Below are positions 5,160 through 57,189 of a stretch of 64,000 nt of DNA, piece after piece. The DNA lies in the NCBI RefSeq assembly GCF_010122465.1, contig NZ_WLZY01000003.1, positions 434,001 to 498,000 of the forward strand, written 5' to 3'. The position numbers and the translations under genes were made by a program. Under the pieces are notes generated by a model. The model searched no databases, was not told where the DNA came from, and was given only the letters and a program-made list of their open reading frames with translations. Each line of letters begins with the position of its first letter. Position 1 is the first letter of the stretch. Source of the DNA: Phytoactinopolyspora mesophila (GTDB lineage: Bacteria; Actinomycetota; Actinomycetes; Jiangellales; Jiangellaceae).

Positions 5160-5260
5160 GGCCCCGGCGGCACCCCCTCGCCGCCATGACTCGGTCGACC
5201 CCCCTGACCGAGTCCGCGCGGTCCCCGTCCTCCCACCCGGCGGGGACCGCGCCCTCATTC
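5160..5260 (+). ncRNA. 6C small RNA
   Basis: Two hairpins with cytosine-rich loops followed by a strong terminator. Hairpin 1: GGCGGC at 5166-5171 with GCCGCC at 5180-5185 and a loop holding five C. Hairpin 2: ACTCGGTC at 5189-5196 with GACCGAGT at 5206-5213 and a loop holding exactly six C. Terminator: a perfect 12-bp stem, 5216-5227 with 5241-5252. The C-rich twin loops define the 6C family of actinobacteria, and the M. tuberculosis copy lies between the HAD-phosphatase and ssd homologues, the same position. A further small hairpin at 5139-5154 may mark the 5' end. The exact transcript ends are not determined. Confidence 0.88.
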
Positions 5261-17040: not shown

Positions 17041-17087
17041 AAGTGATCGTCTGGGGCCGCAAGCGGCTCCAGACGATCACTTTGTTG
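17041..17087 (+). terminator. Rho-independent terminator after hppA
   Basis: A 20-bp stem, 17041-17060 with 17063-17082, containing only one G-T pair and a minimal loop, followed by TTTGTT. The arms begin AAGTGATCGTCTGG, so the arm start resembles the TGATCG arms of the 89-bp palindromes nearby. It ends the hppA transcript 23 bp after the stop. Confidence 0.85.
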
Positions 17088-17163: not shown

Positions 17164-17252
17164 GGTGATCGTCAGTACGTTGTGGTTGCTACAGGGGTGA
17201 TCGACAGCGCCTTGTGGCTGTCACCAACAACCAATACCCACTGACGATCACC
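17164..17252. repeat. 89-bp palindromic element, copy B1
   Basis: Outer arms GGTGATCGTCAGT (17164-17176) and ACTGACGATCACC (17240-17252) are exact complements. An inner imperfect hairpin lies at about 17196-17225 (GGTGATCGACAGC against GCTGTCACC). The first 21 bases match the start of copy B2 at 30678 with few differences, and both are exactly 89 bp. It lies between the convergent hppA and MocR genes. Confidence 0.75.
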
Positions 17253-30400: not shown

Positions 30401-30682
30401 GATGAAGCCGGCACTGGCGACGCCGACGGAAGCGACACCGGTGACGCTGACGGCACGGATGACGGCAGTGCGGTGGGTGACGCTGACGGCACGGCACACG
30501 GCAGCGCAAGCGGCGACGGCCAGGAGTCCGGAACCGACGACGGCACGGATGCGAGCCTGCCGGACACGGGCTCCGCGACCGGGGTGTTCCTGTGGGCTGC
30601 AGGCCTGCTGTTGCTGGGCGGCGTCGGCATCGCCGCCGTGAGCCGCCGCCGCGGTTGGCAGAGCCCACCCATCTCCCGATGA
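27464..30682 (+). CDS. HtaA-domain heme-binding surface protein, LPXTG-anchored
   Basis: A 1072-residue cell-wall protein. After a signal peptide (about 1-33) come HtaA domain 1 (about 57-230; LEWGLRTSYRNYIAGPIAHG), an Asp-Pro repeat linker, two or three Ig-like modules (VSLSKTANLDP, SVEPTDNLEVDDEVRITGSGF), HtaA domain 2 (about 728-890; LDWGVRQSFRNYIEGNIAHG), an acidic Gly/Asp/Thr repeat spacer, LPDTG at about 1030, a hydrophobic helix and an Arg tail. HtaA domains bind heme through a conserved Tyr and His; both domains keep the Y/F-RNYI...AHG segment. GTG 27464 follows AAGGAG. Its stop lies inside palindromic element B2. Confidence 0.93.
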   Translation: MTRHDYRRRAFRRPAVAALSAALTLGGLTAAGAQTTAIPLSAGHSGAVARGVSGGDLEWGLRTSYRNYIAGPIAHGEIITSDSAVWLDGPGNARGPFSFPNATGSLDTDTGIGHLAFDGQVYTGGHDYGDGPILELTISNIRLDVDDDHGTLIVDAEYRPFVGANPNIEPPAVETAADMAFGQVDLSGADLTPDDAGVVTVAGAPVTGVREAMEAIGWDLFYSGELPDIQLDPLSFTVTVEDVSAPDPDDPGDPDDPGDPDDPNDPEPPVWEPAVEVFAADGETPLADTEVTPGDDVVVRGSGFDPDANESTRPPVPTGLPAGVYVVFGKFADVWQPSEGVPSSSRHVIDQRWAMTQGTLDAVPDRFKDSILEQHVALTPEGTFEATLTVDAADDIEGGYGVYTYAAGGAAANPEHEIAIAVSVGTGEGPTEPDPDPDPTVSLSKTANLDPYADLVTVTGAGFLPGPLADGLQVGVGPVTDDGTVPDLDPVTTLLPGDDEIKADGSFEVDLRTEQVEPGDTLAVYTAPVDASAPESYRTSTEISFAPARKPELSVEPTDNLEVDDEVRITGSGFAPNRKISIAITANTATHETYGWPTGWLGHGVVQADADGNLERTLTVTGTVTGSGEDCSDLDCYVASFSSAQAGDATPVDYRADRSQDVFVPISFATGGTAPDPDPDPRDPALTISPDTVERGQSVTFAGADLAPGETASVVVTTEADAATDATLDWGVRQSFRNYIEGNIAHGSIDVRAPASRNDDGTFRFTDGHGTATAETADLVFSGEVRFAGHDYGDGPLLQMTISEPRVIAEGDAGVLVADVASKSLDSGEIVDYPAVEFAELDFSDAPLTITGDVVSASGVTATLTEDGVPAFADFYEAGTVLDPIGFTATLAGGSETEAGSGIVDENGAVDVSWTVPDNFPVGTATATMTAGDDQLSGQFTVEPASGGGDENGDDEGGDADGTDDGDAGGTDSGDTGGADEAGTGDADGSDTGDADGTDDGSAVGDADGTAHGSASGDGQESGTDDGTDASLPDTGSATGVFLWAAGLLLLGGVGIAAVSRRRGWQSPPISR

Positions 30683-30766
30683 TCGTCAGTACGTTGCGGT
30701 CTTCCTCAGGGTCGTTATGTCACGATTAGTCCCCGCAGGAACGACCACAGAGCACTGACGATCACC
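30678..30766. repeat. 89-bp palindromic element, copy B2
   Basis: Arms TGATCGTCAGT (30680-30690) and ACTGACGATCA (30754-30764) pair exactly; an inner stem GGTCGTT/AACGACC follows. The left arm starts like copy B1, while the loop and right half resemble copy B3. The TGA in the left arm is the stop codon of the HtaA gene. Confidence 0.75.
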
Positions 30767-30789
30767 AGGGTTTGCCGCTCAATCCTTTC

Positions 30790-30878
30790 GGTGATCGTTG
30801 GCGAGATTCGGTTGCTACCCGTGGCGATATGCCCCGATCGTCACCTCAAGGAACAGCCACAGATCGCCAACGATCATC
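30790..30878. repeat. 89-bp palindromic element, copy B3
   Basis: Arms TGATCGTTGGCGA (30792-30804) and TCGCCAACGATCA (30864-30876) pair exactly. The arm bases differ from B1 and B2 on both sides in a complementary way. The loop shares CGAT-GTC-CC-CA-GGAAC-CCACAGA with B2. It lies 23 bp after B2, upstream of the VOC gene. Confidence 0.75.
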
Positions 30879-35424: not shown

Positions 35425-35913
35425 ATGCCAGTCTCGCCATATATCCGCCGGCTGCGTGCGGCCATCGGCCAGGACCTGATCCTCCTGCCGGCCGTCGCCG
35501 TCCTGCCCCGCGACGAGCACGGCCGCATTCTGCTGGTCAGGCAGTCGGACACCAAGCAGTGGGCCACCATCGGAGGATCAATCGAGATCGACGAAGACCC
35601 CGCGACAACTGCCGTACGGGAAGCCCAAGAAGAGGCGGGTGTGGAGGTGGAGCTGACGCGGCTCGTCACCGCACTCGGCGGTCCCCAGTTCCGGCTGACC
35701 TATCCGAACGGCGACCGCACGTCGTACGTCAGCCTCGTCTACGAAGCGCGCGTCGTTAGCGGCGAGCCGGAACCGGATAACGACGAGACCATAGACGTCG
35801 GCTGGTTCGGCCTAGAGGAACTATCCGACATCGACCTGGGCGACTTCGCCCGCAGCATGTTCTCCGCCCTCGGCCTTCTCGACCCCGCCACCAGTTCTCC
35901 CCGCCCCACCTAA
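35425..35913 (+). CDS. Nudix hydrolase
   Basis: A 162-residue hydrolase of nucleoside diphosphates linked to another group. The full Nudix box is present: GSIEIDEDPATTAVREAQEE followed by AGVEVE, with the REUXEEXGU core that binds Mg2+. The substrate is not defined. ATG 35425 follows GGGAGG. The stop TAA falls within the CTAAATG end of palindromic element A1, so the element supplies the stop codon. Confidence 0.92.
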   Translation: MPVSPYIRRLRAAIGQDLILLPAVAVLPRDEHGRILLVRQSDTKQWATIGGSIEIDEDPATTAVREAQEEAGVEVELTRLVTALGGPQFRLTYPNGDRTSYVSLVYEARVVSGEPEPDNDETIDVGWFGLEELSDIDLGDFARSMFSALGLLDPATSSPRPT

Positions 35914-36001
35914 ATGATCATGTTTGGCGGGTTTTCTCGCGCCTGCCCCTGCCTGCAGGACTGTTGACGCGCAAGGAAGCCTACCGAACATGATCATTTA
36001 G
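35910..36001. repeat. 92-bp palindromic element, copy A1
   Basis: Starts CTAAATGATCATGTT and ends AACATGATCATTTAG; arms pair over about 30 bases with a few mismatches and pairing continues outwards (CCCAC/GTGGG). The loop contains CCTGCAGG, shared with copies A2 and A3. It lies between two rightward genes. Confidence 0.8.
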
Positions 36002-36057
36002 GTGGGCGTGAAAGGGCGGGGCGGGGTCACTAATGTGGTTGAGAGGAGGTTGTTCCA

Positions 36058-40500: not shown

Positions 40501-40602
40501 GGTCATGAGTGCCAGCGTCAAGCCCCGGCTTGCTGGCCGGCAACCCTCCATACCGCGGTGGGGTGCCCCGGGTGAAGACCTGGCCGCCTCGATCCTGAGG
40601 CG
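40501..40602 (+). promoter_or_regulatory. SAM-IV riboswitch
   Basis: P1 pairs GGTC (40501) with GACC (40577-40580). P2 pairs GCCAGC (40511-40516) with GCTGGC (40532-40537), its loop CCCCGG able to pair with CCGGG near 40568. P3 pairs GGCAACCC with GGGGTGCC. P1 closes directly after P3 with no P4 hairpin between, and a 3' hairpin CGCCTC/GAGGCG (40585-40602) follows: the SAM-IV layout rather than SAM-I. Downstream, CCGGGTC (40623-40629) pairs with GACCCGG (40633-40639), covering the first bases of the GGAGG ribosome site, so SAM probably blocks translation of the aminotransferase. Confidence 0.9.
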
Positions 40603-40646
40603 TCAAGCGCGGGCCCGCGGCGCCGGGTCCTTGACCCGGAGGTGCT

Positions 40647-48074: not shown

Positions 48075-48091
48075 CCTACACCCGGCCTCAC

Positions 48092-48183
48092 CTAGATGAT
48101 CATGTTTGGTGGGTTTTCTCGTGGATCAACAGGACTGCAGGCATGGTCAAGCACGAGGAAACCCACCAAACATGATCATCTAG
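48092..48183. repeat. 92-bp palindromic element, copy A2
   Basis: Starts CTAGATGATCATGTTTGG and ends CCAAACATGATCATCTAG; the 31-32 base arms pair with about one exception. The loop, read on the minus strand, shares ACCATGCCTGCAG with copy A3. It lies between convergent genes, and its final CTA provides the TAG stop of the leftward YndJ-like gene. Confidence 0.82.
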
Positions 48184-55142: not shown

Positions 55143-55234
55143 CTAGATGATCATGTTTGGTGGGTCTTCTCTTGGGTCACCATGCCTGCAGGCCTATCGA
55201 CGCGCGAGAAAACCCACCAAACATGATCATCTAG
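55143..55234. repeat. 92-bp palindromic element, copy A3
   Basis: Starts CTAGATGATCATGTTTGG and ends CCAAACATGATCATCTAG; the 29-base arms differ at one position. The loop has ACCATGCCTGCAGG as in A2 (minus strand). Unlike the other copies it lies between divergent genes (serpin and tmk), so it cannot be a simple terminator there. Confidence 0.82.
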
Positions 55235-55291
55235 CTGGGCGAAGAGGTGAGCCGGTCAACAGCTGGCGGCGTGGGTGACTACGCTGGCGGC

Positions 55292-57089: not shown

Positions 57090-57189
57090 GCGGTGTGGGG
57101 GTTGTGATGATGCCATCCCCGCCCGCGGCTCGTTCCTCGCCGATGCCCGACCGAACCCTGGATGGCGTCATCACAACCCCCACACCGCG
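57090..57189. repeat. Long inverted repeat after holB
   Basis: The arm 57090-57118 (GCGGTGTGGGGGTTGTGATG...) is complementary to 57160-57189 over about 29 bases with a single G-T pair; the loop is about 41 nt. It starts 6 bp after the holB stop and probably ends the tmk-holB transcript. Confidence 0.75.

What the first reader, a model, noticed from the sequence alone, without database searches (positions are those of the whole stretch)
30678..30878. An 89-bp palindromic family with co-varying arms (family B)
Copies at 17164-17252, 30678-30766 and 30790-30878 are all exactly 89 bp. B1 and B2 share the first 21 bases; B2 and B3 share the loop and right half. In B3 the arm bases differ from B1/B2 on both sides while pairing stays perfect (GTCAGT/ACTGAC versus GTTGGCGA/TCGCCAAC). 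Paired change means the structure, as RNA or as cruciform DNA, is what is kept. Two copies stand 23 bp apart after the HtaA gene.
Basis: partly seen in the sequence, partly recalled or inferred. Interest (0 to 1): 0.75.

Follow-up and report, generated by a model that had tools for sequence, protein, structure and literature searches.

The report
Dispersed paired-arm palindromic DNA repeats
The palindromes are members of a large family of 89-base repeats, roughly a hundred copies in this actinobacterium, that look copied around the genome like the REPIN repeats of other bacteria although the enzyme known to move REPINs was not found, so how they spread is open.

Summary
B1, B2 and B3 are real and exactly 89 bp. 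They belong to a family dispersed through a Phytoactinopolyspora genome: 143+126 arm matches (control 2+0), roughly 100-135 elements by extrapolation. I collected 59; 51 of 59 are 89 bp and 39 of 59 carry a third internal arm. Outer arms co-vary: 11 pairs changed on both sides versus 6.4 in shuffles, 0/500 (40 of 59 elements). The middle arm follows only weakly. On the mRNA strand G-T (48) does not exceed A-C mismatches (46), so RNA folding is not shown to be what is kept. Of 1275 pairs, 42 are at least 85% identical over 89 bp, with flanks no more alike than those of unlike pairs: the 89-bp unit was copied. No target duplication of 4-9 bp. Elements favour gene 3' ends; 9 of 26 in tandem gaps contain the upstream stop codon, as B2 does. 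No B element stands at these places in the relatives compared. Best reading: a REPIN/BIME-like population without RAYT (0 of 22 genomes). New variant of a known kind; mover unknown.

The parts
17164..17252 (.). Element B1 (89 bp), three-arm type with a decayed middle arm
   Evidence: sequence; fold z -5.1/-6.4; middle arm at offset 32; model E 1.5e-17 (B1 is in the model's training set)
17164..17189 (+). B1 left arm
17196..17220 (+). B1 decayed middle arm (GGTGATCGACAGCGCC...)
   Evidence: offset 32 in the element
17227..17252 (-). B1 right arm
30678..30766 (.). Element B2 (89 bp), two-arm type with conserved spacer core
   Evidence: fold z -5.6/-9.9; model E 1.2e-14 (B2 is in the training set)
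30678..30703 (+). B2 left arm; bases 30680-30682 are the TGA stop codon of the HtaA gene
30711..30730 (-). B2 spacer core (ACTAATCGTGACATAACGAC on the - strand)
   Evidence: leave-one-out p 0.007
30741..30766 (-). B2 right arm
30790..30878 (.). Element B3 (89 bp), same architecture, different arm word (GTTGGCGA)
   Evidence: fold z -5.7/-4.0; model E 6.4e-10, not in the training set
30823..30842 (-). B3 spacer core (GACGATCGGGGCATATCGCC on the - strand)
   Evidence: p 0.010
17042..17081 (.). Ordinary short hairpin after the H+-pyrophosphatase gene, base also GTGATCGTC/GACGATCAC; not a B element
   Evidence: relatives have other hairpins here (by eye)

Best explanation
The three palindromes are copies in a REPIN/BIME-like population of small non-autonomous repeats. 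The unit is 89 bp: two inverted 26-nt arms (GGTGATC-N13-GGTCGC in the common form) around a 37-nt spacer that usually holds either a third arm or a conserved 20-nt core. Shown: many copies, nearly fixed length, whole-unit copying into unrelated flanks, co-varying outer arms, position after genes, absence from the orthologous places compared, another arm word in P. limicola and no B arm in the three other genus members. Inferred: the unit is spread by a recombinase or transposase supplied elsewhere that acts on the two arms as a matched pair, probably through a hairpin formed by one DNA strand; arms are kept complementary because both ends must be recognised or because the hairpin is copied. 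Insertions survive after stop codons and are lost from promoters. Any effect on neighbouring transcripts is a by-product. The mover is not the REPIN transposase RAYT.
For: 143+126 arm matches against 2+0 for the reversed pattern; 51 of 59 collected elements are exactly 89 bp; 42 of 1275 element pairs are >=85% identical over 89 bp with mean flank identity 0.38, the same as for pairs under 75%; isolated arms are rare: one clear truncated copy and one compound cut by an assembly gap in 1.39 Mb; outer arms co-vary, 0/2000 and 0/500 shuffles (of the five measures the number of pair types is the weakest, 6/500); the same paired variants (GG, GC, AC at positions 14-15) occur with both spacer types; B elements 24 convergent, 26 tandem, 5 divergent of 55 placed, against 13.5/55.8/30.7% expected from intergenic gaps >=110 bp (binomial 5e-8 and 1e-4); 9 of 26 tandem elements hold the stop codon; no element in 180 kb of P. 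limicola that is in pieces syntenic with the region of 9 elements at C3:416-522 kb; B arm with up to 2 mismatches 0 times in G001, G002 and G004 and one element in G003; exact arm 0 hits in GTDB r220, where the own species may be left out. Published REPINs have conserved ends, a less conserved spacer whose length matters, and common compensatory changes (PMC3116915, passages read).
Against: No RAYT and no candidate mover found; the five places between neighbouring elements that I read held ordinary-looking genes, and only about a fifth of the genome was read. No target-site duplication of 4-9 bp and no strain-level empty site, so insertion is inferred from copies and from diverged species (syntenic DNA 67-83% identical). 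Spacers are not free: 18 of 21 two-arm spacers keep a core, which a pure passenger would not need. Single arms fold at best weakly, unlike REP units. The model built from B also matches palindromes in 11 of 22 family genomes, including 26 and 35 matches in two genomes of other genera, so the wider class is older than this expansion. At the HtaA end B2/B3 stand where relatives have short hairpins, which also fits a transcript-end role.
Confidence: 0.6

Rival explanations
1. Transcript-end elements: the hairpin is formed in RNA and ends or protects transcripts on both sides (bidirectional terminator, or Rho/RNase barrier with the C-rich stretch upstream on either strand).
For: Position right after stop codons and excess between convergent genes. 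At the pyrophosphatase/GntR-aminotransferase junction one relative (G001) has a family-A element where three others have short hairpins; at the HtaA end B2/B3 stand where G001, G003 and G004 have short hairpins (hairpins read by eye, the G004 one also found). Flanks are C-rich before (52-58%, controls 31-38%) and G-rich after (50-54%, controls 30-33%) in all gene contexts. In the three-arm orientation A-C exceeds G-T mismatches, 53 versus 18, which would suit an RNA of the opposite strand.
Against: No excess of G-U over A-C on the mRNA strand (48 versus 46); no T-run downstream; elements lie between genes of what looks like one operon, 20-27 nt before the next start; other hairpins are not significantly rarer beside elements (tandem 0 of 27 versus 31 of 422, p 0.24; convergent 2 of 13 versus 15 of 99, p 1), a weak test because few hairpins were detected at all.
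Confidence: 0.17
2. Chromosome-architecture or regulator sites: the arms are binding sites for a host protein (as IHF or gyrase bind BIMEs), and the copies are kept for that.
For: The arm ends GGTGATC and GTCGC recur in P. limicola while the bases between differ (by eye); nearly fixed spacing of the middle arm (offset 31 or 33, once 32); conserved asymmetric spacer core.
Against: Arm words differ between species and are uniform within one, which needs copying rather than site-by-site selection; sites are not conserved at the orthologous places compared.
Confidence: 0.12
3. Classical MITEs of a DDE transposase.
For: Short terminal inverted repeats, many copies, sharp borders.
Against: No target-site duplication of 4-9 bp (a small excess at 2 bp, 0.24 versus 0.16, is not carried further); no transposase recognised between neighbouring elements in the places read; arms in the middle of the unit.
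Confidence: 0.08
4. Covariation is only correction of an imperfect palindrome by strand switching during replication, with no role for the ends.
For: Within-element arm similarity, and a weak signal also for arms 2 and 3.
Against: The nearer pair (arms 2 and 3, 6-nt loop) should then be corrected more than arms 1 and 3 (37-nt loop); the opposite is seen (z 1.9 versus 5.3; closest pair 1-3 in 17, 2-3 in 10, 1-2 in 7 and ties in 3 of 37).
Confidence: 0.1

Closest known systems
REPINs (REP doublets forming hairpins; Bertels and Rainey 2011, PMC3116915, passages read)
   Same: Two inverted conserved ends (71 bp apart in group GI), a spacer whose length matters more than its letters, compensatory changes, extragenic, many copies. 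That words differ between lineages is my recollection.
   Different: No RAYT gene in 22 Jiangellaceae genomes, whereas REPINs are duplicated by RAYTs, though E. coli genomes without RAYT still hold some (PMC8049555, passages); a third internal arm or conserved core in the spacer; arms fold at best weakly by themselves.
BIME-1 / RIB elements of E. coli (two inverted REPs with an IHF-binding sequence between, at 3' ends of transcription units; PMC2817692, passages read)
   Same: Two inverted arms, a conserved asymmetric core between them, position after genes; mosaics of 2, 3 or 4 arms occur here.
   Different: The core here is not shown to bind anything; host is an actinobacterium.
GTAG-/CGTC-tagged REPs, some inserted in GC palindromes (Di Nocera 2013, PMC3733652, passages read)
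   Same: Dimers with set spacing; the T. roseum family lies within small palindromes of the form CC...GG, like the C-rich/G-rich flanks here.
   Different: The words actinobacteri- and Streptomyces do not occur in that main text.
MITEs
   Same: Short non-autonomous units with terminal inverted repeats.
   Different: No target-site duplication of 4-9 bp.

Membership tests
REPIN | Two inverted conserved ends with a spacer, pairing into one hairpin, as the unit of dispersal | tested here: met
REPIN | Compensatory changes between the two ends | tested here: met
   11 pairs with both sides changed versus 6.4, 0/500 (40 of 59 elements); 0/2000
REPIN | Cognate RAYT transposase in the genome or its relatives | tested here: not met
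   PF01797 0 of 22, NF047646 0 of 22; E. coli is among the control genomes that ring in both; a RAYT on a missing stretch or too diverged is not excluded, and RAYT-less E. coli genomes still hold REPINs
REP | Each unit is itself a small palindrome | tested here: not met
   as DNA the commonest arm folds no better than shuffles (z -0.8, 46 of 200; other strand -2.0, 13 of 200); as RNA weak: z -1.4 (22 of 200), variant -2.2 (6 of 200), other strand -1.8 (16 of 200), P. limicola arms 0.2 and 1.0
REP | GTAG or CGTC tag at the end of the unit | not tested
   only looked at by eye: units begin GGTGATC; CGTC occurs at bases 7-10 of the B arm but not in the arms of families A or C
BIME-1/RIB | Inter-arm sequence bound by IHF | not testable with these tools
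   a conserved core exists (18 of 21); binding unknown
MITE | Target-site duplication | tested here: not met
   direct-repeat identity of flanks is at or near expectation for k 4-9, 87 elements
Rfam structured RNA | Match to a family above its gathering score | tested here: not met
   only SAM-IV, tRNA and 6C in the window, none at B1-B3
Intrinsic terminator | Hairpin followed by a T-run | tested here: not met
   15 nt downstream: G 50-54%, T 14-16%

The most novel reading that the evidence does not exclude
A REPIN-like population that lives and spreads without RAYT, in a phylum for which the texts I read describe no REPIN population (one lists REP counts by a broader definition): a so far unknown DNA-moving activity acts on paired 26-nt arms, lets arms be swapped, added or replaced (2-, 3- and 4-arm forms), and changes the arm word between species. 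Repeats of this kind may have arisen more than once with different enzymes.
Probability: 0.4. Interest if true: 0.72.

Novelty: new variant of a known kind. Interest (0 to 1): 0.5.

Why it matters
REPINs are described as duplicated by one domesticated transposase, RAYT (PMC8049555, passages). A population with the same anatomy and compensatory evolution, expanded in one species with no RAYT in any sampled relative, would separate the two and point to another enzyme that copies hairpin DNA. The species-specific arm words make the question testable by comparing strains. It also warns that covariation across genome copies, a usual sign of functional RNA, can come from matched ends of a copied DNA unit.

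Tried and rejected
Rfam: no family at the elements. Phage records: no match. RAYT as mover: absent by two models. Genes between neighbouring elements as an autonomous form: five places read, ordinary-looking genes by their translations (threonine aldolase-like, GNAT, F420/flavin oxidase-like, transporter genes, and one ORF that I could not assign; these names are my reading, no family search was run on them). Target-site duplication: none of 4-9 bp. Terminator replacement: not significant. Wobble asymmetry as a sign of RNA: in the three-arm orientation A-C exceeds G-T (53 versus 18 over 26 positions; 21 versus 9 over positions 1-22), which would suit an RNA of the opposite strand; part of it comes from fixed letters at positions 24 and 26, and on the mRNA strand it is absent (48 versus 46); I count it as open. 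Arms as REP hairpins: not supported as DNA, weak as RNA. Literature on the motif string: 82 papers, the 20 listed looked unrelated by title.

Rows dropped and limits: of 69 palindrome candidates in 1.39 Mb, 13 weak ones were set aside, mostly inside called genes (56 kept); context is for the 54 of 69 between called genes, 15 being inside called genes (at least three of those look like real elements with a faulty gene call). Gene calls come from a simple script of mine, so starts are rough. Of the 59 B elements 29 come from contiguous stretches and 30 from loci fetched because they matched, which favours close matches. The 40 aligned elements are 40 of the 51 that are 89 bp; the other 11 and the 8 of 88 or 90 bp were left out for convenience, not by score; 10 of the 40 are two-arm, which dilutes. 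One search uses 37 of 39 three-arm elements (B1 and the 90-bp one left out). Collection allowed 4 mismatches per arm and so excludes B3-like words. The tool's backward control for the loose palindrome pattern (0) understates the background. In one search only 150 candidates per genome were scored and both strands count, so its number for the own genome is a cap.

Full report
What is there. B1 (17164-17252), B2 (30678-30766) and B3 (30790-30878) are present as described, each 89 bp, and each folds much better than 200 shuffles (RNA both strands; DNA + strand). Two details differ from the finding: B1 and B2 differ at bases 2 and 20 of the first 21, and B2 and B3 share a 20-nt spacer core rather than an identical loop. 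B2 follows the HtaA gene (PF04213) so closely that bases 3-5 of the element are its stop codon.

Where it is. The window is C3:434001-498000 of a 6.51 Mb genome. A same-genus genome, G003, has a first contig of 1,158,724 bases, the length of Phytoactinopolyspora limicola scaffold 1, so the genus is Phytoactinopolyspora (Jiangellaceae, Actinomycetes). The species of the window itself was not named by any search.

A large family. The arm pattern GGTGATCGNCAGTNNGNTGTGGTYG with up to 3 mismatches occurs 143 times forward and 126 times in reverse; the pattern read backwards 2 and 0 times. With up to 2 mismatches it occurs 126+119 times here, 1+2 times in G003 (one 89-bp element, C1:302567-302655, and one lone match), and 0 times in G001, G002 and G004; six of the 55 genomes outside the genus have one lone match each, so 8 of 60 genomes have any. 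A looser palindrome pattern, TGATCRT-60 to 80-AYGATCA, gives 215 places here and 89, 27, 112 and 71 in the four other genus members, 35 in one other genus and 0-16 in the remaining 16 genomes of the family; many of the latter that were listed look like coding coincidences, so the tool's backward control of 0 understates the background. A covariance model of 40 elements gives 150 matches here (the cap, both strands), 57 in G003, 14 in G004, 1 in G001, 0 in G002, and matches in 7 of the other 17 genomes, most in G014 (35) and G009 (26): palindromes of this class exist elsewhere in the family with other letters. In 1.39 Mb of contiguous sequence I found 29 B elements, which extrapolates to about 135; dividing 269 arms by 2.66 arms per element gives about 100. 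Both are estimates.

Anatomy. Of 59 collected B elements 51 are 89 bp, 5 are 88 and 3 are 90. 39 of 59 have a third arm inside, at offset 31 (25 elements) or 32 (B1) in the direction of the left arm, or at offset 33 (13) in the direction of the right arm; the two arrangements are mirror images (26-5-26-6-26 nt). The other 20 have another spacer. With B3 added, 18 of these 21 spacers match a shared 20-nt core, consensus ACAAATCGGGCCAAAAGGCC, in a leave-one-out test (the matrix was refined on the same set first, so the p values are somewhat kind). 13 of the 18 have it at offset 10 or 11, in either direction; the other 5, at offset 0 or 1, are the five 88-bp elements. B2 and B3 have this core; B1 has a decayed third arm. 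In P. limicola the same architecture occurs with other arm words and with 118-bp four-arm forms centred on GTCGCTATAGCGAC; by eye, GGTGATC and GTCGC at the ends of the arm recur while the bases between them differ. An exact scan of GTDB r220 for GGTGATC-N14-GTCGCTATAGCGAC found 37 stretches, 35 in P. limicola and 2 in Longispora albida; an exact scan for the B arm found none. In both scans the own species may be left out.

Covariation. On an ungapped alignment of 40 of the 59 elements, the 26-pair outer stem has 92.2% standard pairs (shuffles 88.8), 11 pairs with a change on both sides (6.4, sd 1.1) and a covariation score of 0.133 (0.074), none of 500 shuffles reaching these; the number of further pair types is weaker (17 versus 14.0, 6/500). 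My permutation of whole arms between elements gives z 5.3 for 37 three-arm and 4.2 for 20 two-arm elements, 0 of 2000 each. The middle arm with the right arm gives z 1.9 (74 of 2000) and with the left arm 1.1 (309 of 2000); in the alignment it has 7 both-side pairs (7.8 expected) and a score of 0.100 (0.083, 1/500). Shuffles ignore relatedness, so some of the excess is shared descent; but the equal-arm states GG, GC and AC at positions 14-15 are each found with both spacer types, so the paired states did not simply arise once each. Nearer arms being less alike speaks against simple strand-switch correction.

RNA or DNA. For elements of all families between genes of one direction, mismatches of the mRNA strand are G-T 48 and A-C 46. 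Selection on an RNA stem should favour G-U. Among three-arm B elements in tandem gaps, direction does not clearly follow the genes (6 versus 9). The 15 nt after an element are G-rich, not T-rich. Against this, in the three-arm orientation A-C exceeds G-T (53 versus 18), which would suit an RNA of the other strand. I conclude that an RNA role is not shown; a DNA-level reason for matched arms is more likely.

Copying. 42 of 1275 pairs of 89-bp elements are at least 85% identical throughout (best 93%), while their 20-nt flanks are on average 38% identical, the same as for pairs under 75%. Single arms are almost absent: one clear truncated element, and one compound cut by an assembly gap, in 1.39 Mb. 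So the 89-bp unit, not the arm, has been copied to new places. No direct target duplication is seen for 4-9 bp (a small excess at 2 bp, 0.24 versus 0.16, is not carried further); instead positions 1-3 outside the element pair with each other more than expected (67, 47 and 42 of 87 versus 50, 35 and 34), and the 15 nt on the left are 52-58% C and on the right 50-54% G in all gene contexts, against 31-38% C and 30-33% G in element-free intergenic DNA. The element therefore sits in, or carries, a weak outer palindrome.

Sites. 55 of the 59 B elements lie between called genes: 24 convergent, 26 tandem, 5 divergent; 4 were unclear. Gaps of at least 110 bp are 13.5% convergent and 30.7% divergent, so convergent is in excess (5e-8) and divergent depleted (1e-4). 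In 9 of 26 tandem cases the upstream gene stops at the TGA in GG-TGA-TC. At the B1 place, P. limicola, G002 and G004 have short hairpins of other sequence and G001 has a family-A element; at the B2/B3 place G001, G003 and G004 have short hairpins after the HtaA stop, and I saw none in the first 110 nt in G002 (by eye). In 180 kb of P. limicola, covering in pieces the region of 9 elements here, no such element was found by two searches. The syntenic DNA there is 67-83% identical, so exact empty sites cannot be read.

What it works like. Inverted conserved ends, a spacer of set length, compensatory changes and extragenic spread are those of REPINs (PMC3116915, passages), and the arm-core-arm form recalls BIME-1/RIB (PMC2817692, passages). 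It is not filed as a member: RAYT is absent from 22 of 22 genomes by two models, with E. coli among the controls that ring, and the arms do not fold on their own as DNA (weakly as RNA). Absence of RAYT alone is not decisive, since E. coli genomes without it still hold REPINs (PMC8049555, passages); here, however, the arm word is confined to one species in the scans made and no sampled relative has the gene. Eight literature searches (listings seen) did not show such a family described in Actinomycetes; most subscription journals are outside that library, and a 2025 survey lists REP counts for three other actinobacteria by its own broader definition (PMC12306157, passages).

Verdict. The best account is a REPIN/BIME-like population of copied 89-bp units with matched ends, moved by an enzyme not found here; the RNA reading is possible but is not supported by the tests that bear on mRNA.

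Noticed in passing
window 35905-36006, 48089-48183, 55143-55237: Family A: 82-bp (TGATC to GATCA) palindromes TGATCATGTTTGGTGGGTTTTCTCG... with CCTA(G/A)A flanks, 10 in 1.39 Mb by a strict filter, interiors conserved too; one in a relative (G001) lies after the pyrophosphatase gene and supplies the stop codon of the facing gene.
   Followed up: partly
window 57090-57188: A single 99-bp palindrome with 29-nt arms 97% complementary; weak match to the B model, E 2e-4, but no B arm.
   Followed up: no
G003:C1:312470-312587 and others: P. limicola has 118-bp four-arm nested palindromes centred on GTCGCTATAGCGAC.
   Followed up: partly
L193:1865-1908, L199:3851-3900: Longispora albida has palindromes GTGGGACCCCTCATGTCGCTATAGCGACATGAGGGGTCCCAC next to GATCACC or GGTGATC; the central motif is shared with P. 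limicola.
   Followed up: no
G003:C1:128515-129100: A cluster of CACCTGATC/GATCAGGTG repeats forming a large imperfect palindrome after a gene.
   Followed up: no
G000:C1:1024926-1025093: A run of N (assembly gap) lies inside a compound B element, as if the palindrome broke the assembly.
   Followed up: no
relatives G001:C12:128891, G002:C6:7746, G004:C29:72888: 46-50 bp hairpins with the same TGATCAT/ATGATCA base lie in these stretches; they may be short kin of the long elements.
   Followed up: no
window 5185-5255 and 40501-40615: 6C RNA and a SAM-IV riboswitch (Rfam).
   Followed up: no
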